NCBI GenBank assembly: GCA_000828975.1
Contig: AP014683.1
Span: 2,871,700-2,935,699 of the forward strand
DNA: 64,000 bases
Origin: Burkholderiales bacterium GJ-E10
GTDB taxonomy: Bacteria; Pseudomonadota; Gammaproteobacteria; Burkholderiales; Burkholderiaceae_F
Direction: 5' to 3'
Shown: one piece after another, positions 7,646 to 26,101 of the stretch
How the letters are laid out: every line of letters begins with the position of its first letter
Position numbering within the stretch: the stretch's first letter is position 1
The notes under the pieces: model-generated
Databases searched by the model: none
Told to the model about the DNA's origin: nothing
Seen by the model: only the letters and a program-made list of their open reading frames with translations
Translations under genes and position numbers: made by a program

Positions 7646-8005
7646 TCAGGACACCTCGGCCAGCAGGCTCTCGTAGGGGATCTTCAGGCCTTCGTGCAGT
7701 CGCTTGACCATCCGCAGGCTGAGCGGCCGCTTGCGGTTCAGCACCTCGGACACCCGTCCGCTCGGACCAATGAAAGGCTCAAGATCGCGATGCGTCAGTC
7801 CCTCTTGTTCCATGCGGAACTTGATTGCCTCCACCGGGTCCGCGGGCCCGAAGCCATAGTGCTTGTTCTCGTAGGCTTCTACCAAGGCCACCAGGACGTC
7901 GCGCTCATCGGCCTGGGCCGTGCCTTCCTCGGCCTGGAAAATCTTCTCCATGCGGTGGAACACATTCTTCAGGTCGTCGTCGTTTCGGATCGGCTTAATA
8001 GTCAT
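7646..8005 (-). CDS. HigA-type HTH antitoxin (locus 1)
   Basis: 119 residues. The N-terminal half is a helical neutralisation region. The C-terminal half is an XRE-type helix-turn-helix: AIKFRMEQEGLTHRDLEPF, then GPSGRVSEVLNRKRPLSL. It overlaps the toxin gene higB1 by 11 nt, in the toxin-first order typical of higBA. The protein aligns closely with the N-terminus of the fused protein at 22816-24051 (EAI-FRM-EQGL, RVSEVL--KRPL), so the two loci are paralogous. It should bind the palindrome at 8321-8339. Confidence 0.85.
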   Translation of the reverse strand: MTIKPIRNDDDLKNVFHRMEKIFQAEEGTAQADERDVLVALVEAYENKHYGFGPADPVEAIKFRMEQEGLTHRDLEPFIGPSGRVSEVLNRKRPLSLRMVKRLHEGLKIPYESLLAEVS

Positions 8006-8312
8006 TCACGCTCTCCACGTCGATGCGGTCGTACTGCGCATGCGTCCCGACGAACTTCACCCAGACGATCCCTGCCTGATACTGCACTTCGACCACCAGC
8101 CGGTACTGGTACTTGTTGCCGCCCACGTTGAACACCATGCGGTTGTTACCGCAGATGCTCGCGCTGGCGTACTGATCCTTGATGTCCTGCGGCCGGCGCC
8201 ACTTCGCCTTGAGGGCCTCTTCGTACCAGCTGTGCAGCGGGCCTCGCGCATCGGCACAGCCGGGGCGCTCCCAGAAGTTCTTCAGGCTGCTCTTGGCGAT
8301 GACCCTCATCAT
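7995..8312 (-). CDS. HigB-type mRNA-interferase toxin (locus 1)
   Basis: 105 residues of the HigB toxin family (RelE-like fold, ribosome-dependent mRNA cleavage). The conserved motif series is W--PQDIKDQYASAS (~res 39-52), NNRMVFNVGGNKYQYRL (~res 56) and GIVWVKFVGTHAQYD at the C-terminus. Two ATGs in tandem start the gene (8312, 8309). A perfect 19-bp palindrome lies just upstream. The toxin is about 50% identical by eye to the HigB at 24051-24332. Confidence 0.88.
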   Translation of the reverse strand: MMRVIAKSSLKNFWERPGCADARGPLHSWYEEALKAKWRRPQDIKDQYASASICGNNRMVFNVGGNKYQYRLVVEVQYQAGIVWVKFVGTHAQYDRIDVESVNDY

Positions 8313-8668: not shown

Positions 8669-8986
8669 TTACGCTGGCGTCGTTTCGCGCGGCGACACTT
8701 TGCGCGCAATATCCTTGCGAGTAGGGAGCGTCTTGAGGTCGTAGTCCGCCTGCATTGCCAACCACGAAGCAGCATCGCCACCAAAGTAACGCGCCAACCG
8801 CTCCGCGGTATCTGCGCTCACCCCGCGGCGCTCCTTCACGATTTCATGGACACGGGTGGCGGGAACGCCAAGAGCCATCGCAAGGGCATTGACGCTCAAC
8901 CCGATGGGAGCAAGGAATTCCTCGCGGAGAATTTCCCCCGGGTGCACCGGTCGCATGCGATTAACCGATCGTTCCATTGTCATCAC
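8669..8986 (-). CDS. higA: HigA-family antitoxin (locus 2)
   Basis: 105 residues of the classic HigA/VapI/GraA family: MRPVHPGEILREEFLAPIGLSV (~res 11), an HTH in LAMALGVPATRVHEIVKERRGVS (split as helices ~res 35-58), and the FGGDAASWLAMQADYDL signature. It lies 3 nt after the toxin gene in the same orientation. It is not closely related to the HigA of locus 1; it is the more common short HigA type. It should neutralise the neighbouring toxin and autoregulate through the palindrome at 9279-9297. Confidence 0.9.
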   Translation of the reverse strand: MMTMERSVNRMRPVHPGEILREEFLAPIGLSVNALAMALGVPATRVHEIVKERRGVSADTAERLARYFGGDAASWLAMQADYDLKTLPTRKDIARKVSPRETTPA

Positions 8987-8989
8987 CCA

Positions 8990-9268
8990 TCAGTGATAGT
9001 CCACAATCTCCACGCCACCGGGTCCTGCCTCCGTCCAGACAAAGCAGACTCGCCACTGGTCATTGATGCGGATGCTCCATTGCCCGGCGCGATCACCCTT
9101 GAGCGCCTCCAATCGATTTCCCGGTGGTGATCGCAAAAAATCCAACGTCTTTGCTGCATCCAGCATCGTCAGCTTCCGGGTCGCGACCATTTCAATGGCG
9201 CGAAATCGCTTCGGGCGACCGCCCTCGAACATGAGCTGCGTGTCCCGACAGCGGAAGGATTGGATCAC
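8990..9268 (-). CDS. higB: HigB/GraT (RelE-superfamily) toxin (locus 2)
   Basis: 92 residues: MIQSFRCRDTQLMFEGG, FRAIEMVATRKLTMLDAA, and the conserved LEALKGDRAGQWSIRINDQWRVCF centre (~res 54-77) with a C-terminal VEIVDYH. This is the plasmid-maintenance-killer HigB family, a ribosome-dependent mRNA endonuclease. The GTG start at 9268 is used. There is almost no leader between it and the palindromic operator. The transposon copy 1 inserts only 113 bp upstream but leaves the promoter region intact. Confidence 0.9.
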   Translation of the reverse strand: MIQSFRCRDTQLMFEGGRPKRFRAIEMVATRKLTMLDAAKTLDFLRSPPGNRLEALKGDRAGQWSIRINDQWRVCFVWTEAGPGGVEIVDYH

Positions 9269-9376: not shown

Positions 9377-9381
9377 GCACC
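9377..9381. repeat. Target-site duplication GCACC (left, copy 1)
   Basis: GCACC directly precedes the TGTT end of the element. The same five bases follow its other end at 12977-12981. A 5-bp duplication is usual for Mu/Tn7/Tn5053-type transposition. Confidence 0.9.
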
Positions 9382-9610
9382 TGTTGTCTCCCGCGTTAAT
9401 TCGCAATCCGCGATTCTCTGGATGCCGGATTGCGTCCCCGGTGAGCGGTGGACTGCGGTGGTTGAGAGCGGGTCGCTGGCGGGGGTGAGGGGTTTCTGAA
9501 GGGTATTTCTCGAGCGGCGGGGGGAGCGGGGGGCGGCAGGCCCCCCGCTTCTCCTGATTGATGTTGATCGCTGTGCCGCGGTTGCCATTTGGCAACGGAC
9601 GTTTTGGACC

Positions 9611-10318
9611 GTGACGGCGATCGGCGGTAGGCTTGCGCGATCACATGGAATGGGGTGGCCCGGCGGGGTACACGGCCCCGCCGGGCCGGTGCTGGTGCTG
9701 CTTCGATTCGCGTCGGGGCTGACCAGCGAGGAGTACGTTACCCGACAGGGGTGGCGGCAGGCAAGTCTCGAGAGGTGTCCGCTGCACCCGAAGGGCGGCT
9801 GCGGACTGCACCGAAACGGCACCTATGCACGCGTCACCCCTGTCGGGACACGGATCGCCCGCTGGTACTGCCCGCAGGGACACTGCACGTTCGCCTTGCT
9901 GCCCGATTGCCTGGCGGCGAGGTTTCCGGGCGCGCTGGCCGACATCGAGCGGGTCGTGGCCGCCGTCGAGCGATCCCCAAGCCTTGCGCAGGCCGCGGCG
10001 CTGCTGCGGCCCGACGACATCAGCCTACCCAGCGCGCTGCGCTGGCTGAGGCGACGGCTGCGGCCGGCGCGCATGGCATTCCAATGCTGGATCACGCTGT
10101 GGCCCGAGCGGCTGCGGGGCTGTCTGCCGCGAGTCGAGCCGTTGCGGGCGCATTTGGGGTGCGCCTGCGTGCTGGTGCACGGCCGCGCCCTTGCCGCCGA
10201 GTACCTGCACGAGTTGCCCCGGTTCGTCGGGTTTGCGCCACCGGCTGCTCGTGCCGGTGGACGCAAACGGCTCGACCAACAACACATGGGGGCTGATCCG
10301 CCGGCTCAGGCGCCGTAG
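9611..10318 (+). CDS. Element protein 1: Cys/His-rich putative accessory protein (copy 1)
   Basis: 235 residues from a GTG, with no family recognised with certainty. The N-terminal half has a putative zinc-binding cluster: ERCPLHPKGGCGLHRNGTY (~res 53-72) and ARWYCPQGHCTFALLP (~res 83-98), four Cys and several His. The middle is helical, and LPSALRWLRRRLRPAR (~res 138) could be a DNA-binding helix-turn-helix. It is the first gene of the element, 36 bp before the transposase. In related Tn5053/Tn7 elements the extra protein (TniQ/TnsD class) helps choose targets. That role here is inference from position and zinc-finger-like character only. Confidence 0.5.
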   Translation: MTAIGGRLARSHGMGWPGGVHGPAGPVLVLLRFASGLTSEEYVTRQGWRQASLERCPLHPKGGCGLHRNGTYARVTPVGTRIARWYCPQGHCTFALLPDCLAARFPGALADIERVVAAVERSPSLAQAAALLRPDDISLPSALRWLRRRLRPARMAFQCWITLWPERLRGCLPRVEPLRAHLGCACVLVHGRALAAEYLHELPRFVGFAPPAARAGGRKRLDQQHMGADPPAQAP

Positions 10319-10354
10319 TGTCGCGGCTCCCATCTTGCTCAAGGAGCCGATCCG

Positions 10355-11701
10355 ATGTCCGAGCCCGATCCCGGCCGGGCCGTGGCGCTGTTTCGCTACG
10401 GCCTGATCGCCGACCTCATCCACCGTCCGCCCGCCATGCCGGGCCTGTACGCGCTGCTCGCCCGCAAGGCCGAACAGTCCTACGTCATCCCGGGAACCAC
10501 GCGCACCCGGGTGGCGACCGAGACCTTGCGCGACTGGTTGCAGTCGTACCGGCGCGGCGGCTTCGACGCGCTGGTGCCCAAGCCGCGATCCGACCGCGGC
10601 CAATCCCGTGCGCTGCCCCAGGCCGTGGCCGACGCGCTGCTCAGCCTCAAGGACGAGCAGCCCGGGCTGTCGATCCCGCTGCTCATCGACACCCTGCGCA
10701 AGCAAGGCGCGATCGGACCCGAGCAGGACGTGCCCAGGACCACCGTGCACCGCCTGCTCAGCCGTGCCGGCCTGATGCACAAGGGCGCCGAGCAACCCAC
10801 CGACCAGGATCGCCGGCGCTTCGCATACGCGCAGCCCGGTCAGCTGTGGATGAGCGACGTCATGCACGGCCCGACGGTGAGCGTCGGCGCAAGCCGCCGC
10901 AAGACCTACCTGATCGCGTTCATCGACGATGCCACCCGCGTCGTGCCGTACTGCGCCTTCGCCCTGTCGGAGAACACGGCCGCGTTCCTGCCCGTGTTCA
11001 AGCAGGCCCTGATGCGCCGCTCGATCCCCCAGCGCCTGTTCGTCGATAACGGCGCCAACTACCGCTCGCAGCACCTCGCGCTCGTCTGCGCCAAGCTGGG
11101 CGTTGCGCTGATCCACGCCCGCCCTTACCAGCCTGCGGGCAAGGGCAAGCAGGAACGCTGGTTCCGTACCGTACGCTCCCAACTGCTCTCGCGCCTCAGC
11201 GCCGAGGACACCGCCAGTCTCGATGCGCTCAACCGCCGTCTGTGGGCCTGGGTCGAGGGCGAGTATCACCGCACCCCGCACCGCGGACTCGATGGACAGA
11301 CTCCGCTCGAGCGCTGGGCCCAGTGCGCCGAGCACCTGCGCGCACCCGACCCGCGCCTCGATCTCGATGACCTGTTCCTCTTCGAGGCCAAGCGGCGCGT
11401 GCACCGCGATCGCACGGTCAGCCTCAACGGCACCGTCTTCGAGGTCGATGCCTCGCTCGTCAACGAGACCGTCACCCTGCGCTTCGACCCGGCCGCCCCC
11501 GCCGGCCGCGGCATCGAGGTCTGGCACAACAGCGTCTTCATCCACCGCGCCAAGCCGGTCGATGCCTACGCCAACTGCTTCGTGCGCCGCAATCGGCCTT
11601 CCCGCACTCTGGAGGCCCAGGCCCAGCCCGGATCGCAGCCCACCCCCGGCCTGGCGCTGCGCAGGCTGCTGACCGATAAACCCGATGAGGAGTCGCGCTG
11701 A
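10355..11701 (+). CDS. DDE (rve-type) transposase, copy 1
   Basis: 448 residues. An N-terminal helix-turn-helix region (~res 45-150, including LRDWLQSYRRGGFDALVPK) precedes the retroviral-integrase-like core. There the first Asp is in WMSDVMHG (~res 169), the second in FVDNGANYRS (~res 230) and the Glu in AGKGKQERWF (~res 266), with 35 residues between the last two (D35E). A C-terminal beta-barrel-like region follows (VHRDRTVSLNGTVFEVD), as in Mu-type transposases. It catalyses strand transfer at the element ends. The stop overlaps the ATPase start by one base (TGATG). Confidence 0.92.
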   Translation: MSEPDPGRAVALFRYGLIADLIHRPPAMPGLYALLARKAEQSYVIPGTTRTRVATETLRDWLQSYRRGGFDALVPKPRSDRGQSRALPQAVADALLSLKDEQPGLSIPLLIDTLRKQGAIGPEQDVPRTTVHRLLSRAGLMHKGAEQPTDQDRRRFAYAQPGQLWMSDVMHGPTVSVGASRRKTYLIAFIDDATRVVPYCAFALSENTAAFLPVFKQALMRRSIPQRLFVDNGANYRSQHLALVCAKLGVALIHARPYQPAGKGKQERWFRTVRSQLLSRLSAEDTASLDALNRRLWAWVEGEYHRTPHRGLDGQTPLERWAQCAEHLRAPDPRLDLDDLFLFEAKRRVHRDRTVSLNGTVFEVDASLVNETVTLRFDPAAPAGRGIEVWHNSVFIHRAKPVDAYANCFVRRNRPSRTLEAQAQPGSQPTPGLALRRLLTDKPDEESR

Positions 11702-12501
11702 TGTATCTGGCCCACTTCGGCTTCACCCACTATCCCTTCGAGCGCGCGCTCGCCCCCGACGAGCTCTTCGGCGCCGTGGCGCTGCGCGAGGCCCAGGCAC
11801 GGCTGCAGCACCTCGTCGAGCTGCGCGGCATCGGCCTGATCACCGGCGAAGTCGGCAGCGGCAAGACCACCGCCTGCCGGCACCTCGCCTCGGCCCTGCA
11901 CCCAGGGCTCTATCGCCTGTTCTACGTCACGCTCTCGACCGGCAACGTGCTCGACATGTACAAGTCGATCGCCTGGCAGCTCGGCCTGCCCATCGAGCGC
12001 AACCGTGCCTGCGCCTACCGCGCGATCCAGGCCGAGGTCCTGCGCATGACCTCCGAAGCGCGCCAGCACCCCGTCCTGGTGATCGACGAGGCGCAGCACC
12101 TGCGCAACGACGTGCTCGAAGACCTGCGCCTGCTGACCAACTACGCGATGGATTCCGAGCGCCGCTTGACGCTGCTGTTCGTCGGTCTGACCGAGCTGCG
12201 TCGCCGCCTCTCGATGGCGGTGCACGAATCGCTCGAGCAGCGCATCGTCGTGCGCTACCACCTCAACGGCTTCTCCCGTGAAGAGCTCCCCGCCTACCTG
12301 ACCCACCGCCTGCAACTCGCCGGCAGCACACTGCCGCTGTTCGACCCCGCCGCCACCGAGGCCCTCTACCAAGCCTCCCAGGGACTGCCGCGCCGCGTCA
12401 ACCGCGCCGCCCACTACGCCCTGTCCGCCGCCGCCCTGGCTAAATCCCAGCAGGTCAGCACCGAGCACGTCCAAACCGCTCTCGAGGAGTTCCGGCCATG
12501 A
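11701..12501 (+). CDS. ExeA/TniB-like AAA ATPase of the element, copy 1
   Basis: 266 residues. Walker A is GEVGSGKTT (~res 49), Walker B VLVIDEAQHL (~res 122), sensor LLFVGLTELRRRL (~res 157), and the arginine-rich end LPRRVNRAAHYAL (~res 230). The N-terminus YLAHFGFTHYPFE is typical of the ExeA/GspA family ATPases. Encoded next to a DDE transposase, it is most likely the target-selection/immunity regulator analogous to MuB, TniB or TnsC. It is coupled to the transposase (1-nt overlap) and to the next small gene (4-nt overlap). Confidence 0.9.
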   Translation: MYLAHFGFTHYPFERALAPDELFGAVALREAQARLQHLVELRGIGLITGEVGSGKTTACRHLASALHPGLYRLFYVTLSTGNVLDMYKSIAWQLGLPIERNRACAYRAIQAEVLRMTSEARQHPVLVIDEAQHLRNDVLEDLRLLTNYAMDSERRLTLLFVGLTELRRRLSMAVHESLEQRIVVRYHLNGFSREELPAYLTHRLQLAGSTLPLFDPAATEALYQASQGLPRRVNRAAHYALSAAALAKSQQVSTEHVQTALEEFRP

Positions 12502-12746
12502 ACGCCTACGACTCCGATCCCTGGCCCTCGTTCCTCTGCGACTCCGACGACGACGACATCAACGACGCCGACGCCGCTCGCCTCGTGGACCTCATCTACG
12601 CCCTCGGCGACTTCGTCGCCACGCACTTCGCCTCTCGCCTCTCCAGACACGCGCGCCGCCAGCGCGACAACTGCCCCATCAACGAGCAAAACCCGGATCC
12701 CCGGCAGATGAACCTCTTCCCAGGCTACCTCCTCGATCCGTTCTGA
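12498..12746 (+). CDS. Element protein 4: small acidic protein (copy 1)
   Basis: 82 residues beginning on an ATGA overlap with the ATPase. It has a very acidic N-terminus (CDSDDDDINDADAARLVDLI), a helical middle (LIYALGDFVATHFASRLSRHARR) and a polar tail ending MNLFPGYLLDPF. No family is recognised. Conservation in both copies and the translational coupling suggest it is a real element gene. Its role is unknown. Confidence 0.6.
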   Translation: MNAYDSDPWPSFLCDSDDDDINDADAARLVDLIYALGDFVATHFASRLSRHARRQRDNCPINEQNPDPRQMNLFPGYLLDPF

Positions 12747-12976
12747 ATCCGCCACCACCCCGCAGCGGCAGCGGCGCAACAGCGCCGCCCACTACCGCCC
12801 GCCTGCGCAACCCCCGAAATCCACCGTCCGCATCGCCGCCGCCAATCGATCGCCGGCTCCCGCATCGCTCCACCGCTTCCACATTCCGCCACGCGGGCAA
12901 CCAATCCGGACACCCCGCGTTCAAACCTCGCGAACTATCGCGGAACATCGCTCGCGAAATACCGCGGGCGCTAACA

Positions 12977-12981
12977 GCACC
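12977..12981. repeat. Target-site duplication GCACC (right, copy 1)
   Basis: Matches 9377-9381. The joined flanks (…CCGCACC|CCCAAC…) do not restore a recognisable gene, so copy 1 appears to sit in an intergenic or decayed region. Confidence 0.9.
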
Positions 12982-13221
12982 CCCAACTCCAGGGCCGGGA
13001 AGGCGCGCGTCGGCGCATCGTCGGCGGCGGGAGACCGGTCGCTCGTGAGCTGGCGCCGTCGACCCCTTGCAGCCATTCGGTTTCTCAAGGGTTTAACGGC
13101 GGGTATCGGAGTGGACCGGTCACTCGGCGGAGCCCCTTAGGGGCAGCGCGTCGGGGTCCTCCGAGGACGCACGAATCGGCTACATTTGACGCTTCAAAGC
13201 ATATTGAAATGGGAAGGCGGC

Positions 13222-14028
13222 ATGGCGCGAACCATTTATGACAAGCCAACCAGAGCGTTGCTGAAGGACATGCTTTCAGACTGGGGGCTGAAACCCGGTG
13301 AGACGTTCGCAGCACAGCGCGCAATTGATTGGTTTGCTCAACACTACCCGAAGCTTAAGCCCGGGAGCATCCACGCGCATTTGGTGCAGGCCTCGACCAA
13401 TGATCGGAGCCGGCTTCACCACCCATCGACCAACAGCACCGACGATCTTCTGTTCAAGGTTGGTTCGCGAGAATACCGGCGCTATGACCCGGAGACCGAT
13501 CCGGCCCCGTTTCATCAGGCGACCAAGGTCCAGATCGCGGCCGCTGGCGGTAAGACCGTATCGGTGACCGAAGAGGATGATGATGCTGGTCCCGCGATCG
13601 ACGCTGCACTGACTGGCTCATCACAGTTCGCTCTCGAGAAAGACCTTCAGCGGTATCTCGCGGACAACTTGCAGCTGATCGAGCCCGGAATGACGCTTTT
13701 CCAGGACGAGGAAATCACCGGCTTGGAGTATCCGGCTGGAGGTGGCCGACGAATTGACATTCTTGCAAAAGATCAATCGGGAGGATTTGTCGTCCTGGAA
13801 CTCAAGGTCGAAAAAGGCTATGACCGTGTCGTTGGCCAACTGCTCCGATATGTCAACTGGGTTCGCAAGGAACTCGCGGAGCCTGGCCAAAGGGTCAGAG
13901 GCATCATCGTTTGCAGATCGATGTCCGAAGACCTTGTCCTCGCATGCGCAGGTATTAAGGATTTGGAACTGTTTGAGTATCGATTACAGGTAACGGTTTC
14001 GAAGGTACCCTTGCTGGAATTTCCCTGA
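13222..14028 (+). CDS. NucS-like PD-(D/E)XK nuclease
   Basis: 268 residues. The ATG at 13222 follows GGGAAGG by 4-5 bases and is preferred to the ATG at 13186. The N-terminal ~90 residues (KDMLSDWGLKPGETF, then a FKVGSREYRRYDP strand) are an unfamiliar accessory domain. The C-terminal ~150 residues match the NucS/DUF91 endonuclease core: EKDLQRYLADNLQLIEPGM, GRRIDILAKD with the catalytic Asp, VVLELKVEKG with E-x-K, and VVGQLLRYVNWV with the Gln. Related proteins cut branched or mismatched DNA, or serve in defence. It lies directly upstream of the IS66 insertion, beyond which is an orphan membrane protein. Confidence 0.8.
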   Translation: MARTIYDKPTRALLKDMLSDWGLKPGETFAAQRAIDWFAQHYPKLKPGSIHAHLVQASTNDRSRLHHPSTNSTDDLLFKVGSREYRRYDPETDPAPFHQATKVQIAAAGGKTVSVTEEDDDAGPAIDAALTGSSQFALEKDLQRYLADNLQLIEPGMTLFQDEEITGLEYPAGGGRRIDILAKDQSGGFVVLELKVEKGYDRVVGQLLRYVNWVRKELAEPGQRVRGIIVCRSMSEDLVLACAGIKDLELFEYRLQVTVSKVPLLEFP

Positions 14029-14143: not shown

Positions 14144-14512
14144 GTGGAGTCGGAATCGGTTGATCTTGGGTGGACCCGCAAGCGTGCGCGGCGCGATGAG
14201 GAAACCTGGAATGGGTTGATCGCGGAGCAGCGTGCGTCTGGGCAGACGGTATCGGCGTTTTGCGCGCAACGCGGCGTACCCCGCAGCAGTTTCGGCAAAT
14301 GGCGCAAGCGCCTGGGTGCGGCGCCGACGAAGGGGAATCGAACCCCGGCGGGCAAGGGGTTCTTGCCATTACCCATCCGCGAGAGCGCACCGCAACCTAC
14401 GGAATCCGTATCGGTCGAGTTGAACGTCGGTGCGATGCGGATTCGCGTCTCGGGTGCCGCAGCGGGCAGAATCGTCGATTCGATCCTTGCGCGCATTGCG
14501 ACGCCGGCATGA
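14144..14512 (+). CDS. tnpA: IS66 accessory protein TnpA
   Basis: 122 residues with the IS66 OrfA pattern. The N-terminal helix-turn-helix reads WNGLIAEQRASGQTVSAFC then RGVPRSSFGKWRKRL (~res 22-60). The C-terminus is a strand-rich tail (SVELNVGAMRIRVSG). It probably binds the element ends. The stop overlaps the tnpB start (ATGA). Confidence 0.9.
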   Translation: MESESVDLGWTRKRARRDEETWNGLIAEQRASGQTVSAFCAQRGVPRSSFGKWRKRLGAAPTKGNRTPAGKGFLPLPIRESAPQPTESVSVELNVGAMRIRVSGAAAGRIVDSILARIATPA

Positions 14513-14856
14513 TTCTGTCGCCCGCGGTACAAGCGTTCGTATACCGCGACGTGGTGGATATGCGCCGCGGGGTCGATGGTCTTCTGCGCCTGGTGACGGA
14601 TGCGTTTTCGCACTCCGCCTTCAGCGGCCATGTGTTCGTCTTTATCGGAAGCCGCCGAGACAAGGTCAAGATGCTGTGGTGGCACAGCACCGGTTTCGTG
14701 ATGCTCTACAAGCGCCTGGAACGGGGGCGGTTTCCGGCACCGCACATGCTGGCCTCGCGTGGTTTGTCGATGGCTGAACTCATGGCGTTTCTCGAGGGAA
14801 TCGACCTCTCGCGCGCAAAGCGCATCGCACACGTGAACGCATCGCGCGTCGCGTAG
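14509..14856 (+). CDS. tnpB: IS66 accessory protein TnpB
   Basis: 115 residues, standard length for IS66 OrfB. Conserved motifs: VDMRRGVDGLLRLV (~res 17), GHVFVFIGSRRDKVKMLWW (~res 40) and GFVMLYKRLERGRFP (~res 62). The ATG at 14509 overlaps the tnpA stop; the longer upstream frame is a tnpA shadow. TnpB is needed for efficient IS66 transposition, but its biochemical role is unsettled. Confidence 0.94.
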   Translation: MILSPAVQAFVYRDVVDMRRGVDGLLRLVTDAFSHSAFSGHVFVFIGSRRDKVKMLWWHSTGFVMLYKRLERGRFPAPHMLASRGLSMAELMAFLEGIDLSRAKRIAHVNASRVA

Positions 14857-14917
14857 TTTTTCTCGTTGATCGCGGTTGCGCTGTCAACGTGGCGCGGCAT
14901 GCATCCGTTTTGGATGC

Positions 14918-16465
14918 ATGCACTCGATCGCCGCCCTCGACATCGAATCTCTTCCTCGTGATGTCGATGCGCTGCTCGAAGTGATCGCCGAGCAGCGCAA
15001 ACAGTTCTCCGCAGTGCTCGAGTCGCTGTGCGCCCAGCTCGCGAAGATGAAGCAGATGACCTTCGGGTCGCGCTCGGAGCGCTTCGCAGGCCAGGCGCTG
15101 CTCTTCACCGAGGATCTTCCCATTCCCCCGGCGCCGCCGAAGCTCCCGACGACGACGGTTGCCGCGCACGAGCGCAAGCGTCGCGGACGTCCAGCGCTTC
15201 CGGCACACCTGCCGCGGGTCCGCAAGGAATATGACCTCACGGACGATCAGAAGGCCGGATTCGACCGGATCGTGCTCATCGGCGAAGTCGTCAGCTCCAC
15301 GCTCGACGTCATTCCGCAGAAGGTATTCGTGATCGACCACGCGCGGGCGAAGTATCGCTGCACCAAGGACGGAATTACTTCGATCGTCGTGGCCGATGCG
15401 CAACCTTCGCCGCTGCCCAAGAGCAACGCCAGCGCCGGGATGCTCGCGCACGTACTGGTGTCCAAGTACTGCGACGGAATTCCGCTCGCCCGCCAGGAGA
15501 AGATCTTCGCCCGGTACGGAGTCGATCTGGCGCGCACGACGCTCGACGACTGGACCCTGGCAAGCACGGAGAAGCTCGCCGTCTTGATGCCCGCGTTCAA
15601 GGCGCACGTTCTGGGCGCCCCCGGGATGTTTGCCGACGACACGACACTGAAGCTCGTCGAGGAGGGTCGACGAAGATCGCGCACCGCAAGGCTCTGGGTG
15701 TACGTCAGCAGCGGTGCGAGACAAGATCCCCAGGGAAACTGGATCGCCTACCCCAAGGCGGCGTACTTCGAGTTCACCGAAACCCGGGAGGCGATCCACC
15801 CAACCCGGTTCCTGAAGGGGTACCGCGGCTTTGTGCAAGCCGACGACTACAACGGTTATCACCCAACCTTTGCCACGGGGTTGGCGAAGCATTGCCTATG
15901 CTGGGCGCATGTGCGAAGGCGCTACTTCGAGGTTGCGTCGCAGCCGGGAGCATCGCCTCTGGCCAGCGAGGCCCTGTCGTTCATCCGCGGCATCTATCTC
16001 GTCGACTCCGAGTACAAGGACGCCACGCCAGACCAGCGGCTTGCGGCAAGAAAGAAGCACACCGTTGCGCTGCTGGAGAAGTTCTATGCGTGGTTGTGCC
16101 ACCACCAGCCGAGCCTGTTGCCGCGATCTCCCCTTGGCAAAGCGTTCGCGTACACGCTCTCGAACTGGGCGGCGCTCATGCGCTTCACCACGGACGGCAC
16201 CGTTTCGCCGGACTCCAACTTGGTCGAGCGAACGATTCGCCCGGTCGCCGTAGGCAGAAAGGCATGGCTCTTCGCAGCATCCGAGCGCGGAGGACACGCC
16301 GCAGCGGTTGCCTTCAGCCTCATCGAATCGTGCAAACTTGCGGGTGTGGAACCCTACGCATACCTTCGCGACGTGCTGCAGCGCATCGACGGTCATCGCA
16401 TCGACCGTCTGCACGAGTTGCTGCCCTTCAACTGGAAGCCCACCGGTGACTGCAACCCCGTTTGA
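14918..16465 (+). CDS. tnpC: IS66-family transposase TnpC
   Basis: 515 residues from the ATG at 14918. A leucine-zipper-like N-terminus (LLEVIAEQRKQFSAVLESL) precedes FGSRSERF (~res 50), a zinc-finger-like/anti-fold region, and the DDE core. Acidic residues are in MFADDTTLKLVEEG (~res 240), FVQADDYNGYHP (~res 310) and NLVERTIRPVAVGRKAWLF (~res 435). The C-terminus carries the usual SLIESCKLAGVEPYAYL motif. The length is normal for a complete IS66 transposase. Confidence 0.94.
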   Translation: MHSIAALDIESLPRDVDALLEVIAEQRKQFSAVLESLCAQLAKMKQMTFGSRSERFAGQALLFTEDLPIPPAPPKLPTTTVAAHERKRRGRPALPAHLPRVRKEYDLTDDQKAGFDRIVLIGEVVSSTLDVIPQKVFVIDHARAKYRCTKDGITSIVVADAQPSPLPKSNASAGMLAHVLVSKYCDGIPLARQEKIFARYGVDLARTTLDDWTLASTEKLAVLMPAFKAHVLGAPGMFADDTTLKLVEEGRRRSRTARLWVYVSSGARQDPQGNWIAYPKAAYFEFTETREAIHPTRFLKGYRGFVQADDYNGYHPTFATGLAKHCLCWAHVRRRYFEVASQPGASPLASEALSFIRGIYLVDSEYKDATPDQRLAARKKHTVALLEKFYAWLCHHQPSLLPRSPLGKAFAYTLSNWAALMRFTTDGTVSPDSNLVERTIRPVAVGRKAWLFAASERGGHAAAVAFSLIESCKLAGVEPYAYLRDVLQRIDGHRIDRLHELLPFNWKPTGDCNPV

Positions 16466-18091: not shown

Positions 18092-18754
18092 CTACGCCGC
18101 TAAGGCGAGCAAGTCGTTGGCGCTGACGCCTGCGGCAACCTGGTTCACAAGCTTTGGCAACTGCGCGGCGACATAGACCATGTGGTGGTTCATGTCGACT
18201 TCAACCCATGTTCCGAGATTGCCGCAGCCGACCTCTCGATTTGCACAGCGCCACACGTAGTCGTCACCGTAGGAGTGGTCGCGGTCGATATAGACCGAGG
18301 ACTCGACAACTCGCTGCGCCAAGTCGTGGTATTGACCGTATTTCAACCCCTGCTTCAGGCTGTAGCCGCGAAAAATGTGCTGGGCCATGCCCTTGGTGTA
18401 CCGAATCTTTGCGTTCGCGTTCGTTGCGATGATCTTGTCGGAGAAGTTCGGATGGATGATGCCGTAGTCGCCGAATGCAATGACCTCTGAACGCACGCCG
18501 GCAGCTACAGTGAGCCAGAGAGGCATTTCCTGGCGGTAGTACGACATGCAGCCTTCCTTCGGCACTTCACCGACATCCTTGGGCATGCTCGACCCGATGA
18601 CAGAAACAAGTCGGAAGTCCGCTGCGGAAAGTGCCGTGTCGACAAAGTCCTGAGCCAGCCCCCGCAGGCGCACGAGCGCAATTGCGTCGAGGTTGCCGAC
18701 TGATCCAAGGTCGATCAGGAGGTTCGTGTCCGCGGCCGGAAATCGGAAGTCTCG
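18092..18754 (-). pseudogene. Beta-family protein gene, 3' part (split by element copy 2)
   Basis: Encodes the C-terminal ~220 residues: LVRLRGLAQDFVDTALSAADFR, VIGSSMPKDVGEVP, FGDYGIIHPNFSDKIIATNA, IFRGYSLKQGLKYGQYHDLAQRV and CGNLGTWVEVDMNHHMVYVA. These are characteristic of the beta-family (phage T4-type Beta_protein) domain. An internal GTG at 18673 could start a fragment, but the natural start is at 22807. The reading frame runs unbroken into the AAGCC target duplication. Joined to 22355-22807 it forms 372 codons including the stop, with no frame error. Confidence 0.85.
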
Positions 18755-18759
18755 AAGCC
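18755..18759. repeat. Target-site duplication AAGCC (left, copy 2)
   Basis: AAGCC precedes the TGTTAG end and recurs at 22355-22359. Confidence 0.92.
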
Positions 18760-18989
18760 TGTTAGCGCCCGCGGTATTTCGCGAGCGATGTTCCGCGATA
18801 GTTCGCGAGGTTTGAACGCGGGGTGTCCGGATTGGTTGCCCGCGTGGCGGAATGTGGAAGCGGTGGAGCGATGCGGGAGCCGGCGATCGATTGGCGGCGG
18901 CGATGCGGACGGTGGATTTCGGGGGTTGCGCAGGCGGGCGGTAGTGGGCGGCGCTGTTGCGCCGCTGCCGCTGCGGGGTGGTGGCGGAT

Positions 18990-19238
18990 TCAGAACGGAT
19001 CGAGGAGGTAGCCTGGGAAGAGGTTCATCTGCCGGGGATCCGGGTTTTGCTCGTTGATGGGGCAGTTGTCGCGCTGGCGGCGCGCGTGTCTGGAGAGGCG
19101 AGAGGCGAAGTGCGTGGCGACGAAGTCGCCGAGGGCGTAGATGAGGTCCACGAGGCGAGCGGCGTCGGCGTCGTTGATGTCGTCGTCGTCGGAGTCGCAG
19201 AGGAACGAGGGCCAGGGATCGGAGTCGTAGGCGTTCAT
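18990..19238 (-). CDS. Element protein 4: small acidic protein (copy 2)
   Basis: 82 residues, identical to the product of 12498-12746, including the acidic DSDDDDINDAD segment. The start overlaps the ATPase stop by 4 nt. Function unknown. Confidence 0.6.
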   Translation of the reverse strand: MNAYDSDPWPSFLCDSDDDDINDADAARLVDLIYALGDFVATHFASRLSRHARRQRDNCPINEQNPDPRQMNLFPGYLLDPF

Positions 19239-20035
19239 GGCCGGAACTCCTCGAGAGCGGTTTGGACGTGCTCGGTGCTGACCTGCTGGGATTTAGCCAG
19301 GGCGGCGGCGGACAGGGCGTAGTGGGCGGCGCGGTTGACGCGGCGCGGCAGTCCCTGGGAGGCTTGGTAGAGGGCCTCGGTGGCGGCGGGGTCGAACAGC
19401 GGCAGTGTGCTGCCGGCGAGTTGCAGGCGGTGGGTCAGGTAGGCGGGGAGCTCTTCACGGGAGAAGCCGTTGAGGTGGTAGCGCACGACGATGCGCTGCT
19501 CGAGCGATTCGTGCACCGCCATCGAGAGGCGGCGACGCAGCTCGGTCAGACCGACGAACAGCAGCGTCAAGCGGCGCTCGGAATCCATCGCGTAGTTGGT
19601 CAGCAGGCGCAGGTCTTCGAGCACGTCGTTGCGCAGGTGCTGCGCCTCGTCGATCACCAGGACGGGGTGCTGGCGCGCTTCGGAGGTCATGCGCAGGACC
19701 TCGGCCTGGATCGCGCGGTAGGCGCAGGCACGGTTGCGCTCGATGGGCAGGCCGAGCTGCCAGGCGATCGACTTGTACATGTCGAGCACGTTGCCGGTCG
19801 AGAGCGTGACGTAGAACAGGCGATAGAGCCCTGGGTGCAGGGCCGAGGCGAGGTGCCGGCAGGCGGTGGTCTTGCCGCTGCCGACTTCGCCGGTGATCAG
19901 GCCGATGCCGCGCAGCTCGACGAGGTGCTGCAGCCGTGCCTGGGCCTCGCGCAGCGCCACGGCGCCGAAGAGCTCGTCGGGGGCGAGCGCGCGCTCGAAG
20001 GGATAGTGGGTGAAGCCGAAGTGGGCCAGATACAT
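19235..20035 (-). CDS. ExeA/TniB-like AAA ATPase of the element, copy 2
   Basis: 266 residues, identical to the copy-1 ATPase (Walker A GEVGSGKTT, Walker B VLVIDEAQHL). Probable target-selection partner of the transposase. Confidence 0.9.
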   Translation of the reverse strand: MYLAHFGFTHYPFERALAPDELFGAVALREAQARLQHLVELRGIGLITGEVGSGKTTACRHLASALHPGLYRLFYVTLSTGNVLDMYKSIAWQLGLPIERNRACAYRAIQAEVLRMTSEARQHPVLVIDEAQHLRNDVLEDLRLLTNYAMDSERRLTLLFVGLTELRRRLSMAVHESLEQRIVVRYHLNGFSREELPAYLTHRLQLAGSTLPLFDPAATEALYQASQGLPRRVNRAAHYALSAAALAKSQQVSTEHVQTALEEFRP

Positions 20036-21381
20036 CAGCGCGACTCCTCATCGGGTTTATCGGTCAGCAGCCTGCGCAGCGCCAGGCCGGGGGTGGGCTG
20101 CGATCCGGGCTGGGCCTGGGCCTCCAGAGTGCGGGAAGGCCGATTGCGGCGCACGAAGCAGTTGGCGTAGGCATCGACCGGCTTGGCGCGGTGGATGAAG
20201 ACGCTGTTGTGCCAGACCTCGATGCCGCGGCCGGCGGGGGCGGCCGGGTCGAAGCGCAGGGTGACGGTCTCGTTGACGAGCGAGGCATCGACCTCGAAGA
20301 CGGTGCCGTTGAGGCTGACCGTGCGATCGCGGTGCACGCGCCGCTTGGCCTCGAAGAGGAACAGGTCATCGAGATCGAGGCGCGGGTCGGGTGCGCGCAG
20401 GTGCTCGGCGCACTGGGCCCAGCGCTCGAGCGGAGTCTGTCCATCGAGTCCGCGGTGCGGGGTGCGGTGATACTCGCCCTCGACCCAGGCCCACAGACGG
20501 CGGTTGAGCGCATCGAGACTGGCGGTGTCCTCGGCGCTGAGGCGCGAGAGCAGTTGGGAGCGTACGGTACGGAACCAGCGTTCCTGCTTGCCCTTGCCCG
20601 CAGGCTGGTAAGGGCGGGCGTGGATCAGCGCAACGCCCAGCTTGGCGCAGACGAGCGCGAGGTGCTGCGAGCGGTAGTTGGCGCCGTTATCGACGAACAG
20701 GCGCTGGGGGATCGAGCGGCGCATCAGGGCCTGCTTGAACACGGGCAGGAACGCGGCCGTGTTCTCCGACAGGGCGAAGGCGCAGTACGGCACGACGCGG
20801 GTGGCATCGTCGATGAACGCGATCAGGTAGGTCTTGCGGCGGCTTGCGCCGACGCTCACCGTCGGGCCGTGCATGACGTCGCTCATCCACAGCTGACCGG
20901 GCTGCGCGTATGCGAAGCGCCGGCGATCCTGGTCGGTGGGTTGCTCGGCGCCCTTGTGCATCAGGCCGGCACGGCTGAGCAGGCGGTGCACGGTGGTCCT
21001 GGGCACGTCCTGCTCGGGTCCGATCGCGCCTTGCTTGCGCAGGGTGTCGATGAGCAGCGGGATCGACAGCCCGGGCTGCTCGTCCTTGAGGCTGAGCAGC
21101 GCGTCGGCCACGGCCTGGGGCAGCGCACGGGATTGGCCGCGGTCGGATCGCGGCTTGGGCACCAGCGCGTCGAAGCCGCCGCGCCGGTACGACTGCAACC
21201 AGTCGCGCAAGGTCTCGGTCGCCACCCGGGTGCGCGTGGTTCCCGGGATGACGTAGGACTGTTCGGCCTTGCGGGCGAGCAGCGCGTACAGGCCCGGCAT
21301 GGCGGGCGGACGGTGGATGAGGTCGGCGATCAGGCCGTAGCGAAACAGCGCCACGGCCCGGCCGGGATCGGGCTCGGACAT
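20035..21381 (-). CDS. DDE (rve-type) transposase, copy 2
   Basis: 448 residues, identical to the copy-1 transposase with the complete D, D35E triad (WMSDVM, FVDNGANY, GKQERWF). Both copies are therefore potentially autonomous. Confidence 0.92.
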   Translation of the reverse strand: MSEPDPGRAVALFRYGLIADLIHRPPAMPGLYALLARKAEQSYVIPGTTRTRVATETLRDWLQSYRRGGFDALVPKPRSDRGQSRALPQAVADALLSLKDEQPGLSIPLLIDTLRKQGAIGPEQDVPRTTVHRLLSRAGLMHKGAEQPTDQDRRRFAYAQPGQLWMSDVMHGPTVSVGASRRKTYLIAFIDDATRVVPYCAFALSENTAAFLPVFKQALMRRSIPQRLFVDNGANYRSQHLALVCAKLGVALIHARPYQPAGKGKQERWFRTVRSQLLSRLSAEDTASLDALNRRLWAWVEGEYHRTPHRGLDGQTPLERWAQCAEHLRAPDPRLDLDDLFLFEAKRRVHRDRTVSLNGTVFEVDASLVNETVTLRFDPAAPAGRGIEVWHNSVFIHRAKPVDAYANCFVRRNRPSRTLEAQAQPGSQPTPGLALRRLLTDKPDEESR

Positions 21382-21417
21382 CGGATCGGCTCCTTGAGCA
21401 AGATGGGAGCCGCGACA

Positions 21418-22125
21418 CTACGGCGCCTGAGCCGGCGGATCAGCCCCCATGTGTTGTTGGTCGAGCCGTTTGCGTCCACCGGCACGAGCAGCCGGTGGCG
21501 CAAACCCGACGAACCGGGGCAACTCGTGCAGGTACTCGGCGGCAAGGGCGCGGCCGTGCACCAGCACGCAGGCGCACCCCAAATGCGCCCGCAACGGCTC
21601 GACTCGCGGCAGACAGCCCCGCAGCCGCTCGGGCCACAGCGTGATCCAGCATTGGAATGCCATGCGCGCCGGCCGCAGCCGTCGCCTCAGCCAGCGCAGC
21701 GCGCTGGGTAGGCTGATGTCGTCGGGCCGCAGCAGCGCCGCGGCCTGCGCAAGGCTTGGGGATCGCTCGACGGCGGCCACGACCCGCTCGATGTCGGCCA
21801 GCGCGCCCGGAAACCTCGCCGCCAGGCAATCGGGCAGCAAGGCGAACGTGCAGTGTCCCTGCGGGCAGTACCAGCGGGCGATCCGTGTCCCGACAGGGGT
21901 GACGCGTGCATAGGTGCCGTTTCGGTGCAGTCCGCAGCCGCCCTTCGGGTGCAGCGGACACCTCTCGAGACTTGCCTGCCGCCACCCCTGTCGGGTAACG
22001 TACTCCTCGCTGGTCAGCCCCGACGCGAATCGAAGCAGCACCAGCACCGGCCCGGCGGGGCCGTGTACCCCGCCGGGCCACCCCATTCCATGTGATCGCG
22101 CAAGCCTACCGCCGATCGCCGTCAC
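21418..22125 (-). CDS. Element protein 1: Cys/His-rich putative accessory protein (copy 2)
   Basis: 235 residues, identical to the product of 9611-10318, with the same Cys/His cluster (RCPLHPKGGCGLH and WYCPQGHC). Role unknown; target choice is a possibility by analogy with TniQ. Confidence 0.5.
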   Translation of the reverse strand: MTAIGGRLARSHGMGWPGGVHGPAGPVLVLLRFASGLTSEEYVTRQGWRQASLERCPLHPKGGCGLHRNGTYARVTPVGTRIARWYCPQGHCTFALLPDCLAARFPGALADIERVVAAVERSPSLAQAAALLRPDDISLPSALRWLRRRLRPARMAFQCWITLWPERLRGCLPRVEPLRAHLGCACVLVHGRALAAEYLHELPRFVGFAPPAARAGGRKRLDQQHMGADPPAQAP

Positions 22126-22354
22126 GGTCCAAAACGTCCGTTGCCAAATGGCAACCGCGGCACAGCGATCAACATCAATCAGGAGAAGCGGGGGGCCTGC
22201 CGCCCCCCGCTCCCCCCGCCGCTCGAGAAATACCCTTCAGAAACCCCTCACCCCCGCCAGCGACCCGCTCTCAACCACCGCAGTCCACCGCTCACCGGGG
22301 ACGCAATCCGGCATCCAGAGAATCGCGGATTGCGAATTAACGCGGGAGACAACA

Positions 22355-22807
22355 AAGCCTCTCGATCAAGTCCGCGATCGTGTCTTCGCCAGCCTCGACG
22401 TCATCAACCCTGAGTCGAAAGGTCAGACCACGGCCCTCCCGGCCTGCGATCTTGACGACGCGCTCCCAGAGTTCGGGTTCATGGTCGAAGCCGAACACGG
22501 GCGTGAACACGATACCCAGTCCGCGAAGAGTTAAGCACAAGGCTTCAAGCGCCGGGCTACCATCGTTGGTCGTGTGCTTCGGGGCTATCGAATGCAAATC
22601 AACGCTTACCGGCTGCAGCGGGCAGTGCTTGCGAAGTTGATGTGCAAACCGGGCGCAGGAGGCTTCGATCGTTTCGCCTTCGTTCGGAGATAGAAGCTCG
22701 ACTAGCGGATGAACGTGGGGGGTCAGAGAACGCGGCAGTTTTCCCAGTGCCTTGAGGTCGTTTGCCTTCCCCTTCAAGATCGGCGTGTACAGAGTCATCG
22801 CGTTCAC
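22355..22807 (-). pseudogene. Beta-family protein gene, 5' part (split by element copy 2)
   Basis: N-terminal 151 codons from the GTG at 22807, which follows GAGGT at 5-base spacing, 8 nt after the stop of the HTH-ImmA gene. The beginning MTLYTPILKGKANDLKALG and HVHPLVELLSPNEGE match the usual start of beta-family proteins (YxPILKGK...L..L). It runs into AAGCC at 22355-22359 and then the transposon. The family is named after a phage T4 protein and is common in defence or prophage regions; its biochemical role is poorly known. As it stands the gene makes at most a truncated product. Confidence 0.85.
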
Positions 22808-22815
22808 TTACTACC

Positions 22816-24051
22816 TCACTCGAATGAAATTTCGGGAAACTGGCTGCGAACTTCGTTCGCCCCAAGCATTTCACTGAAAACGCGGAAGTTGCCGCTCTCC
22901 CGACGTACGCGGCCCGCGACGATCGCAGGATGAATCATTTGTTCGCCTGCAAACTGAAGAATCCGTTCTCTGCTAGGAGCCGAAACCAACTCACTTCGGC
23001 GCCATGCTGCTCGCGGGATCAGGGCGTCTCGAGCAATGCGATTGGCCTCAATCTCGAGGGCTTCCGTCGCATCACTGCCTTCGAGTCGATCCAAGAACGC
23101 ATCACCTGGGTCGCTCAAGTGCTTCGCTACGTGTGCCAGCTCGTGCAGCAGGGTGAACCAGAAGTGATCCACGCGGTCGAACCGCAGCGTCAGTCCGATG
23201 ACAGGTACGCCATCTTGATCGAGAAACGCTGCCCCATCAAGCTGGGTACCAGCCAAATGGGGCTCGATCACTACCGGAACGCCCTTGCCCTCAATGAGTT
23301 CACAGGCCAAGCGAACGCCGTTCTTGTGCCAGCTCAAATGCACGACTTGCGTCAAGAACGCAGGATTGATGGAATCCGGCGAATACGAAGGCAGATGAAG
23401 GCTCGCTCTGCGCTTTCTCGCTACGTGCAGGACGCGGGCCTTCCATGCGAGTAGTCCATAGCGCGACTTCGGCGTGACAGCGTCCCCGCGCAGGCCCTGC
23501 CGGGCAAGCACCGGAAAGCCTTCGCCCTTAGGCAGGATGCTCGTCACAAAGGCGCGAGCGAGTTCGCGCAGGCTTCGGCCACTTTGCTTTGGGACATCAC
23601 TGAAGTAACCGTGCCGCTCCATTTCGGTGAACGGAAGGCGATCCCAATCGACATCGCTAGAGCCACGAGTCGGCTCCGATTCGATAGGTGCTGAACCAGC
23701 GACGAGGACGTCTGCGGAGATTCCAAGACCGACCGAGAGCTCTCGAATCATCTGTACAGTGAGCGGACGCTTGCCCGCCAGCACCTCGGACACGCGACTC
23801 CTTGACCCAAAGTACGGGACCAGGTCGGCCTGTCGAAGCCCTTGTTCGTGCATCCGAAACTGGATCGCTTCGATGGGGCTAGGTGTCTCGAACTTGAACC
23901 GTGCCCTTTCGTATTCTTCGACCAGAAGTGCGAGAACTTCGAGCCGCGCCCCCTCGGCAGAATCTGGAGACGGGTCAGCGAGCGCAAGCTGCCCCACCTC
24001 GCTAAGGTAGGCGCGATAGTCGGCTTCCGTCTTAATAACCTTCAGTTCCAT
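22816..24051 (-). CDS. HigA-like HTH antitoxin fused to ImmA/IrrE metallopeptidase
   Basis: 411 residues from the ATG at 24051, which overlaps the toxin stop by one base (TGATG). Residues ~1-115 are a HigA domain paralogous to the product of 7646-8005, with HTH AIQFRMHEQGLRQADLVPY and GSRSRVSEVLAGKRPL. A linker region (~120-270) follows. The C-terminal part carries the zinc-protease motif HELAHVAKH (~res 314-322) and a downstream EIEANRIARDALIP segment, the ImmA/IrrE signature (HExxH plus distal Glu). ImmA-type proteases cleave repressors in response to DNA damage or phage. Fusion to an antitoxin suggests protease-controlled release of HigB. Confidence 0.85.
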   Translation of the reverse strand: MELKVIKTEADYRAYLSEVGQLALADPSPDSAEGARLEVLALLVEEYERARFKFETPSPIEAIQFRMHEQGLRQADLVPYFGSRSRVSEVLAGKRPLTVQMIRELSVGLGISADVLVAGSAPIESEPTRGSSDVDWDRLPFTEMERHGYFSDVPKQSGRSLRELARAFVTSILPKGEGFPVLARQGLRGDAVTPKSRYGLLAWKARVLHVARKRRASLHLPSYSPDSINPAFLTQVVHLSWHKNGVRLACELIEGKGVPVVIEPHLAGTQLDGAAFLDQDGVPVIGLTLRFDRVDHFWFTLLHELAHVAKHLSDPGDAFLDRLEGSDATEALEIEANRIARDALIPRAAWRRSELVSAPSRERILQFAGEQMIHPAIVAGRVRRESGNFRVFSEMLGANEVRSQFPEISFE

Positions 24052-24332
24052 CAGTATCTTTTCGAGTATTCGGCGTGTGTCCCGATCCACTCAACGGCAA
24101 CAACCCCCACTTGGTACGCAACGACCGTCACCAGTCGGTACTCGTTCCCTCGCACGTTGAAAATGACCCTGTTCCTTTCGAGCATGCTGGCTGATGCGTA
24201 CTTGTCTTTGATGTCTTGAGGGGTGCGCCATCGTGTTTCTCGGACATCCGTGATCCAGGCAGCGATCCACTTACGGCAGTCAGCGTGCTCAGTGCAGAAC
24301 TGGTCGAGCTTGTCTCGTCCAACTAGTCGCAT
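24051..24332 (-). CDS. HigB-type toxin of the HTH-ImmA/beta module (locus 3)
   Basis: 93 residues: W-TPQDIKDKYASASML (~res 36), RNRVIFNVRGNEYRLVTVV (~res 53) and VEWIGTHAEYSKR at the end. This is the same HigB family as locus 1 and clearly homologous to it. It is the first gene of a three-gene run (toxin, HTH-ImmA fusion, beta-family), all overlapping or within 8 nt. A perfect 17-bp palindrome lies upstream. Confidence 0.88.
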   Translation of the reverse strand: MRLVGRDKLDQFCTEHADCRKWIAAWITDVRETRWRTPQDIKDKYASASMLERNRVIFNVRGNEYRLVTVVAYQVGVVAVEWIGTHAEYSKRY

Positions 24333-24593: not shown

Positions 24594-25445
24594 TCAACTC
24601 CCGCCGCCCCGACGCTCGCGCCGCGCCAGCTTGGCCAGTAAGTAGGCCGAAACGGTGCCGACCACCTCGATGGCGGCCTTGGCCTCTTCGTCTGATAGCG
24701 TGGGCAGCCACGGTCGACCATGGCCCGTGCCCTGTTTGTTGCGAACTCTATTTACGCCTAGAGCGGACAGGAATAAGCCGCGCTCCAATGCCTTCACGGG
24801 CGGCTCGCCTGGCCGCTCGGGGATCTCAGGCACTGCCAGCTCGAGAGCAATGAACGCCATTCCCAGCAACCCTTGGAAGTTGCTGCCCATGGGGTAGTGC
24901 CCTTGAAGGGTTTCCAGCACATGTGCCGCAGTCGCCTCAAGGAGGTCCTTTCCGGTGCCGGCGATGAGCGCTGCATCTTCAGCGCCTTTCTGCGCGCGCC
25001 TAGCGTAAGCCGCGAGGGCGTCCGTGAGTTCAACGCCGCGCAGCGAGGTGAGCACCTTGGGCGATAGCGAGCCGTCGTCAGCCAACACGAATCCCTCCGC
25101 GTCGAAAGCTGCCTTAGCGTTCTCGATGACCTCCCGCCCAACGAAGTTCGGGGAGGCTTCCCGGAACCCGCCACAAGCGCGAACCTTGGCTAGCAGCCCT
25201 GTCGCAAATCGGCTCGCCGCAGATTGGTTGGAATCCATCGCGGTATAGAGAACCGCGCGCACGCGTTTGGCTTTGCCGATCAACTGCCCTTGTTGCTTCG
25301 GGTCGTACTGACTGAGCCCAGCCAGGTTGACATGGAACTCGATGTCGGCGTGCGATGGCTCTCGGTATGCGCCGTTGTTGTTTGAGTCGTCGACGAGCTG
25401 CATCAGCGCGTGGGCGATGGTGTCAGTGATAGGCATGTTGGACAT
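24594..25445 (-). CDS. Abortive-infection family protein (Abi_C domain)
   Basis: 283 residues. The ATG at 25445 follows GGAGCGAAGAA and is preferred to an upstream in-frame ATG at 25604. The N-terminal ~110 residues are helical (LMQLVDDSNNNGAYREPSH). The C-terminal domain matches abortive infection C-terminal proteins: LIAGTGKDLLEATAAHVLE (~res 159), FQGLLGMAFIALEL (~res 189), LGVNRVRNKQGTGHGRP (~res 227) and a final helix ending SAYLLAKL. Abi proteins halt phage growth by killing or arresting the host, and no partner is obvious. It is the last gene of the island. Confidence 0.75.
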   Translation of the reverse strand: MSNMPITDTIAHALMQLVDDSNNNGAYREPSHADIEFHVNLAGLSQYDPKQQGQLIGKAKRVRAVLYTAMDSNQSAASRFATGLLAKVRACGGFREASPNFVGREVIENAKAAFDAEGFVLADDGSLSPKVLTSLRGVELTDALAAYARRAQKGAEDAALIAGTGKDLLEATAAHVLETLQGHYPMGSNFQGLLGMAFIALELAVPEIPERPGEPPVKALERGLFLSALGVNRVRNKQGTGHGRPWLPTLSDEEAKAAIEVVGTVSAYLLAKLARRERRGGGS

Positions 25446-26101
25446 TTCTTCGCTCCGTTCAGGCTGTCGCCTGTTGGAGGATCTTACCGAGCCCAAGAAC
25501 TCGATATTGGCACTTTGATCGAGTTCGTCCACATGCGGGTCGTACCTCTCGTCGAAGATCACTAGTTGGGGGGAGAGCGCTGACGCTTGCCAGCCCGCGG
25601 CCACCAGCGACCGCTGACTTCTGCATAGCTGTCGTCGCCACAGGCGGTGCTCAGCGGCAGCAAAGGCCGATCAGCGCGCGTTGGCCCTTGGGCCGCTTTC
25701 AGGGACCAGCGATCGTTGGAACGACCGTATCGTCACGACGTCTGCCGGCCGCTTGTGGCCGGTAAGGACTTTTCCGCGGCCTGCTTTCCTTGCCGGAAAG
25801 CGGCCATTCCGAGAGGAAGAATGGAGCGCCTCGAGCCGCCGGCCATGGCCGCGTAGCGCTACTTCCGGCGTCCCTCGCAAGTGGGGGATGACCTACGAGT
25901 TAGCCGTGCGTCCCGGCGCCGAGCAGCACAACGGAGTCGGCTCGCAGGGCCGACTGCGGCCCGAGGCCGGAACCGGTGCAGGGCGCCCGGGTATCCTTCA
26001 TGACCTCGTGCGCGACACCCTTCACCCCGACCAACGCGCACGGTACGCCAGATTATCTGCGGGCGTTCGCGATGTCCATGCGACCGCCGGCATATCCGGG
26101 C
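25446..26101. other. Gene-free island edge
   Basis: No convincing gene in 650 bp. GGCCGCTTTC (about 25689) and GAAAGCGGCC (about 25797) form a 10-bp inverted repeat 100 bp apart, with GGCCGCTTGTGGCC between them. This could be a small non-autonomous repeat or a decayed end, but no flanking duplication is visible. No tRNA-like sequence was seen. Confidence 0.35.

What the first reader, a model, noticed from the sequence alone, without database searches (positions are those of the whole stretch)
18092..22807. Element copy 2 cleanly splits a beta-family gene; the intact gene can be reconstructed
Removing 18760-22354 and one AAGCC joins 22355-22807 to 18092-18754 into one frame of 372 codons with no stop or shift. 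The insertion is therefore recent, and the third member of the toxin module is now inactive here. The system may be disarmed or altered.
Basis: seen in the sequence. Interest (0 to 1): 0.7.

Follow-up and report, generated by a model that had tools for sequence, protein, structure and literature searches.

The report
Mobile element splits phage-defence gene
A recently moved, multi-copy insertion element has cut in two the third gene of a known three-gene anti-phage system, which should switch off phage defence while leaving the toxin-neutraliser pair intact; it is a clean but ordinary case of gene disruption.

Summary
A 3595-bp element (18760-22354) with a 5-bp target duplication (AAGCC, 18755-18759 and 22355-22359) splits a minus-strand gene. 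The halves, never joined here, match complementary parts of PADLOC PD-Lambda-2_C and Pfam Beta_protein. They cover residues 1-150 and 152-371 of an intact 371-aa protein in Ideonella oryzae (89-90% aa identity, no gaps), whose DNA has no element at the site.

Upstream lie PD-Lambda-2_A (HigB-like) and PD-Lambda-2_B (HigA-peptidase fusion), so this is the anti-phage system PD-lambda-2. Published E. coli work found B toxic, A its neutraliser, and C unnecessary for neutralisation but required for defence. The best reading is lost defence with a harmless A-B pair left behind. In a class survey, six of ten other long-B loci have no detectable C; five of those still carry A.

The insertion is recent: six identical copies in the genome, intact duplications, and halves still under purifying selection like A and B. 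The element belongs to a little-described group (DUF6431-position ORF, IS481-like transposase, AAA ATPase, small ORF). Both copies in the window keep their own duplication, so the segment between them shows no net inversion. Nothing here is categorically new.

The parts
24054..24332 (-). PD-Lambda-2_A, HigB-like, 93 aa
   Evidence: PADLOC PDLC03981 E 4.6e-45; Pfam HigB_toxin E 6.9e-25
22816..24090 (-). PD-Lambda-2_B, HigA-like domain fused to an ImmA/IrrE-type peptidase, 424 aa; overlaps A
   Evidence: PADLOC PDLC03982 E 2.2e-152; Pfam Peptidase_M78 E 4.4e-07
22355..22807 (-). PD-Lambda-2_C, N-terminal part (151 codons); its open frame now runs 5 codons into the element (22337-22807, 156 aa)
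   Evidence: PDLC03983 profile 1-153; 89% identical to residues 1-150 of the Ideonella protein; ORF list
22355..22359 (.). target-site duplication AAGCC, right copy
   Evidence: sequence
18760..22354 (-). insertion element copy 2, 3595 bp, ends TGTTAGCG...GAGACAACA; its genes lie on the minus strand, the same strand as the split gene
21418..22125 (-). element ORF 1, 235 aa, in the place of a DUF6431 gene in related elements; no direct Pfam or blastp match to that family
   Evidence: position; tblastn relatives on plasmids; no Pfam match; no significant blastp match
20035..21381 (-). element DDE transposase, 448 aa, IS481-like with Mu-type C-terminus
   Evidence: Pfam rve, HTH_32, Mu-transpos_C; NCBIfam transpos_IS481, 204.5 bits, below its 224 cut-off
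19235..20035 (-). element AAA ATPase, 266 aa (TniB/MuB-like role inferred)
   Evidence: Pfam AAA_22 E 1.6e-25
18990..19238 (-). element small ORF, 82 aa
   Evidence: no family; similar to an ORF beside another copy (L006), E 1e-11
18755..18759 (.). target-site duplication AAGCC, left copy
   Evidence: sequence
18092..18754 (-). PD-Lambda-2_C, C-terminal part (220 aa plus stop), cut off from its start; first internal start codon at 18673 (GTG, 193 aa)
   Evidence: PDLC03983 profile 159-371; 90% identical to residues 152-371 of the Ideonella protein; ORF list
9382..12976 (+). insertion element copy 1, exact reverse copy, with its own duplication GCACC (9377-9381, 12977-12981)

Best explanation
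An IS481-like element transposed, with a 5-bp staggered target cut, into the third gene of a horizontally acquired PD-lambda-2 anti-phage operon. Shown: the position, the target duplication, the split and the intact relative. Inferred: whole C protein is no longer made, so phage infection no longer triggers the system, while A still neutralises toxic B; the host keeps a quiet toxin-neutraliser pair and loses the defence.
For: Complementary profile coverage of the halves. Element-free relative with the same gene, 371 aa. All six genomic copies identical, each with a matching duplication. The only Beta_protein matches in the whole genome are these two halves, so there is no backup. E. coli PD-lambda-2: B toxic, A rescues, C dispensable for rescue but needed for defence (PMC9519451). 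In a 369-genome class survey, six of ten other long-B loci have no detectable C within the stretch taken, and five of those six carry A, so A-B can exist alone. The operon matches Ideonella only from C to about 195 nt upstream of A, consistent with horizontal acquisition; none of the six congeners searched has C.
Against: Loss of function is not measured. The published roles come from a distant E. coli homologue. Both halves keep open frames and the element's genes point toward the C half, so fragments could still be made.
Confidence: 0.88

Rival explanations
1. The gene is split but the two pieces (156 aa and about 193 aa) are both made and reassemble into working C.
For: Both halves have open frames, and element transcription could read into the C half, which is on the same strand. 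dN/dS remains low in both, though this mostly reflects time before the insertion.
Against: The C half has no start codon in frame until 18673, losing its first 27 codons. A strong hairpin lies just inside the right end, facing incoming operon transcription.
Confidence: 0.05
2. The arrangement is an assembly error caused by the repeated element.
For: Six identical 3.6-kb copies are a classic cause of misjoins.
Against: Single contig; every copy is bounded by its own matching duplication, different at each site, which misjoins would scramble.
Confidence: 0.02
3. The insertion is a reversible switch: precise excision turns defence on and off.
For: Perfect duplication and undecayed halves.
Against: The same features follow from any recent insertion; no recombinase other than the DDE transposase was found in the element; the element sits at unrelated sites elsewhere.
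Confidence: 0.03
4. Loss of C changes the A-B pair rather than leaving it quiet, for example by altering its expression or its toxicity.
For: C is related to the P4 beta protein, which likely acts as an antitoxin for Gop (PMC9122126).
Against: In PD-lambda-2, C is not needed for neutralisation (PMC9519451); A-B occurs without C elsewhere; A and B here are intact.
Confidence: 0.08

Closest known systems
PD-lambda-2 anti-phage system (Vassallo et al. 2022, PMC9519451)
   Same: Gene content and order A (HigB-like), B (HigA-peptidase), C (P4 beta-like); strong profile matches for all three.
   Different: C is split by an insertion element here; function not tested in this organism.
gop-beta-cII system of satellite P4 (Rousset et al. 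2022, PMC9122126)
   Same: Contains a beta-family protein; protects against phage in E. coli.
   Different: The partner genes matched here are those of PD-lambda-2. The PADLOC 'beta' profile matches only the C half, and weakly (E 2.9e-07). In P4, beta appears to be the antitoxin.
IS481-like multi-gene elements, as on Cupriavidus necator pBB2 and a Pandoraea pnomenusa plasmid
   Same: Same gene order: DUF6431-type or similar-sized ORF, DDE transposase (42% identity), ATPase (32%), small ORF.
   Different: ORF 1 and the small ORF are not recognisably alike by blastp. Closer transposases (64-67%) occur in two genomes of another family.
Tn7/Mu/Tn5053-type transposition modules
   Same: DDE transposase paired with an AAA ATPase, TGT...ACA ends, 5-bp duplications (family traits recalled from general knowledge).
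   Different: Transposase scores best with IS481; no Tn7 targeting genes seen; two copies lie within 5.8 kb.

Membership tests
PD-lambda-2 | HigB-like A gene | tested here: met
   PDLC03981 E 4.6e-45
PD-lambda-2 | B gene: HigA-like domain fused to peptidase | tested here: met
   PDLC03982 E 2.2e-152, nearly full length
PD-lambda-2 | Intact beta-like C gene directly downstream | tested here: not met
   C is present in the right place but split by the element; so this is a disrupted locus of the system, not a complete system
PD-lambda-2 | Phage defence dependent on C; B toxicity rescued by A | not testable with these tools
   shown for E. coli in PMC9519451
gop-beta-cII | gop and cII beside beta | tested here: not met
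   neighbours match PD-lambda-2 A and B, not gop or cII, in PADLOC
IS481 family | Transposase over the curated NCBIfam cut-off | tested here: not met
   204.5 bits against a cut-off of 224; closest to IS481, but not filed as a member
IS481 family | Single-gene element (general knowledge of the family) | tested here: not met
   four ORFs including an ATPase

The most novel reading that the evidence does not exclude
Defence islands may repeatedly lose only the third gene of PD-lambda-2, the one needed for defence, while keeping the A-B pair, so that C-less pairs are relics of disarmed systems or a pool from which defence can be rebuilt.
Probability: 0.15. Interest if true: 0.45.

Novelty: new member of a known kind. 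Interest (0 to 1): 0.22.

Why it matters
It is a natural knock-out that agrees with the laboratory result that PD-Lambda-2_C is dispensable for controlling toxicity: an insertion there is survivable. It also warns that annotation tools may call, or miss, a defence system whose decisive gene is broken. Beyond that it is ordinary transposon biology.

Tried and rejected
Structure prediction of the intact Ideonella C protein with a three-row alignment gave pLDDT 42.5, too poor to use; no fold search was run. No solved structure of the family was found by sequence. No DNA match to the element on plasmids. Rfam: no RNA family in the window. The consensus promoter scan gave nothing above chance. Literature searches for the element type and for insertions in defence systems gave nothing useful. 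Considered and rejected: inversion between the two element copies (each keeps its own duplication) and a second working C gene elsewhere in the genome (none).

Full report
Observation. The element at 18760-22354 is 3595 bp long, begins TGTTAGCGCC and ends GGGAGACAACA, and is flanked by AAGCC on both sides. The minus-strand gene around it is divided into 453 nt (22807 to 22355) and 663 nt (18754 to 18092), both multiples of three. This was enough: the pieces hit complementary parts of Pfam Beta_protein (1-143 and 156-341 of 342) and of PADLOC PD-Lambda-2_C (1-153 and 159-371 of 374).

Intact relative. A scan of about 85,000 species genomes found one close relative, Ideonella oryzae NS12-5 (L022). 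The left and right flanks of the element align separately to one continuous stretch of L022 and meet at 5998-6000, overlapping by three bases within the duplicated target (85% DNA identity). L022 carries an uninterrupted 371-aa gene there, preceded by A and B in the same order. The halves cover its residues 1-150 and 152-371 without gaps. Homology ends about 195 nt upstream of A and at the end of C, so the operon looks like a horizontally moved cassette. None of the six congeners searched has C, and only three other genomes of 67 in the family do.

What the system is. The neighbours are PD-Lambda-2_A and PD-Lambda-2_B (E 4.6e-45 and 2.2e-152). In E. coli, Vassallo et al. [quoted passage not shown] The two halves are the only Beta_protein matches in the genome. 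The most likely consequence is therefore lost defence with a tolerated A-B pair. In a survey of 369 genomes of the class, 11 had a long B match, this one included. Of the ten others, four have C downstream (L062, L063, L064, L070). In six no C was detected in the stretch taken (L065-L069, L071); L071 also lacks a detectable A, and the B match in L065 contains a stop codon. The A-B pair thus occurs without C, though diverged C proteins could be missed.

How recent. The genome holds six copies of the element, all 100% identical over 3595 bp. Each has a matching duplication at its borders: CCAAG, AAGCC, GCACC, GCCGC, CCTGG (5 bp) and GGTGGG (6 bp). Against Ideonella, dN/dS is 0.11 for A, 0.09 for B, and 0.08 and 0.06 for the halves of C, so no relaxation is visible. 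Gene conversion between copies could also keep them identical; the undecayed halves are the stronger argument.

The element. It encodes a 235-aa ORF in the position of a DUF6431 gene, an IS481-like DDE transposase with a Mu-type C-terminal domain, an AAA ATPase and an 82-aa ORF. The same layout occurs on plasmids of Cupriavidus and Pandoraea, with 42% identical transposases; transposases 64-67% identical occur in two other genomes, in one of them at four listed places. The transposase falls below the curated IS481 cut-off, so I describe it as IS481-like, not IS481. A strong hairpin lies at 22180-22218, inside the right end; it may shield the element from outside transcription, which is inference.

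The inverted pair. Copies 1 and 2 are exact inverted repeats 5.8 kb apart and could recombine to flip the segment between them. Each copy has its own matching duplication, so the assembled order is the original one, or an even number of flips has occurred.

Verdict. Observation confirmed, interpretation supported, mechanism ordinary. Interest is low to moderate: a clean natural knock-out of a known defence gene by a member of a poorly described element group.

Noticed in passing
window 9382-12976 and 8669-9268: Element copy 1 inserted about 113 bp upstream of the start of a second HigB/HigA-like pair, possibly at or near its promoter.
   Followed up: partly
window 7646-8312, 8669-9268, 22816-24332: Three HigB/HigA-type pairs within 17 kb, with an Abi_C protein (24594-25604) and a DUF7669-NucS-like nuclease (13186-14028): looks like a defence island.
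   Followed up: partly
window 22180-22218 and L009-L014: A hairpin of about 44 nt inside the element is 91% identical to a hairpin near one end of an unrelated six-copy repeat in the same genome that encodes a different transposase-like protein.
   Followed up: partly
L008 (G000:C1:357280-360874): Another copy of the element appears to split a glycosyltransferase-like gene (reading of the flanking ORFs; not searched).
   Followed up: no
L006 (G000:C1:1143334-1146928): This copy has a 6-bp rather than 5-bp duplication (GGTGGG), and an ORF beside it resembles the element's 82-aa ORF (44% over 80 aa), perhaps the end of a related element.
   Followed up: partly
G000:C1:1417941-1418315: A second match to the HigA-like part of PD-Lambda-2_B in this genome, with an in-frame TGA.
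   Followed up: no
window 14144-16465 and L003 right flank: An IS66-type element lies between the two copies, and a stretch with the same protein sequence lies next to element copy L003.
   Followed up: no
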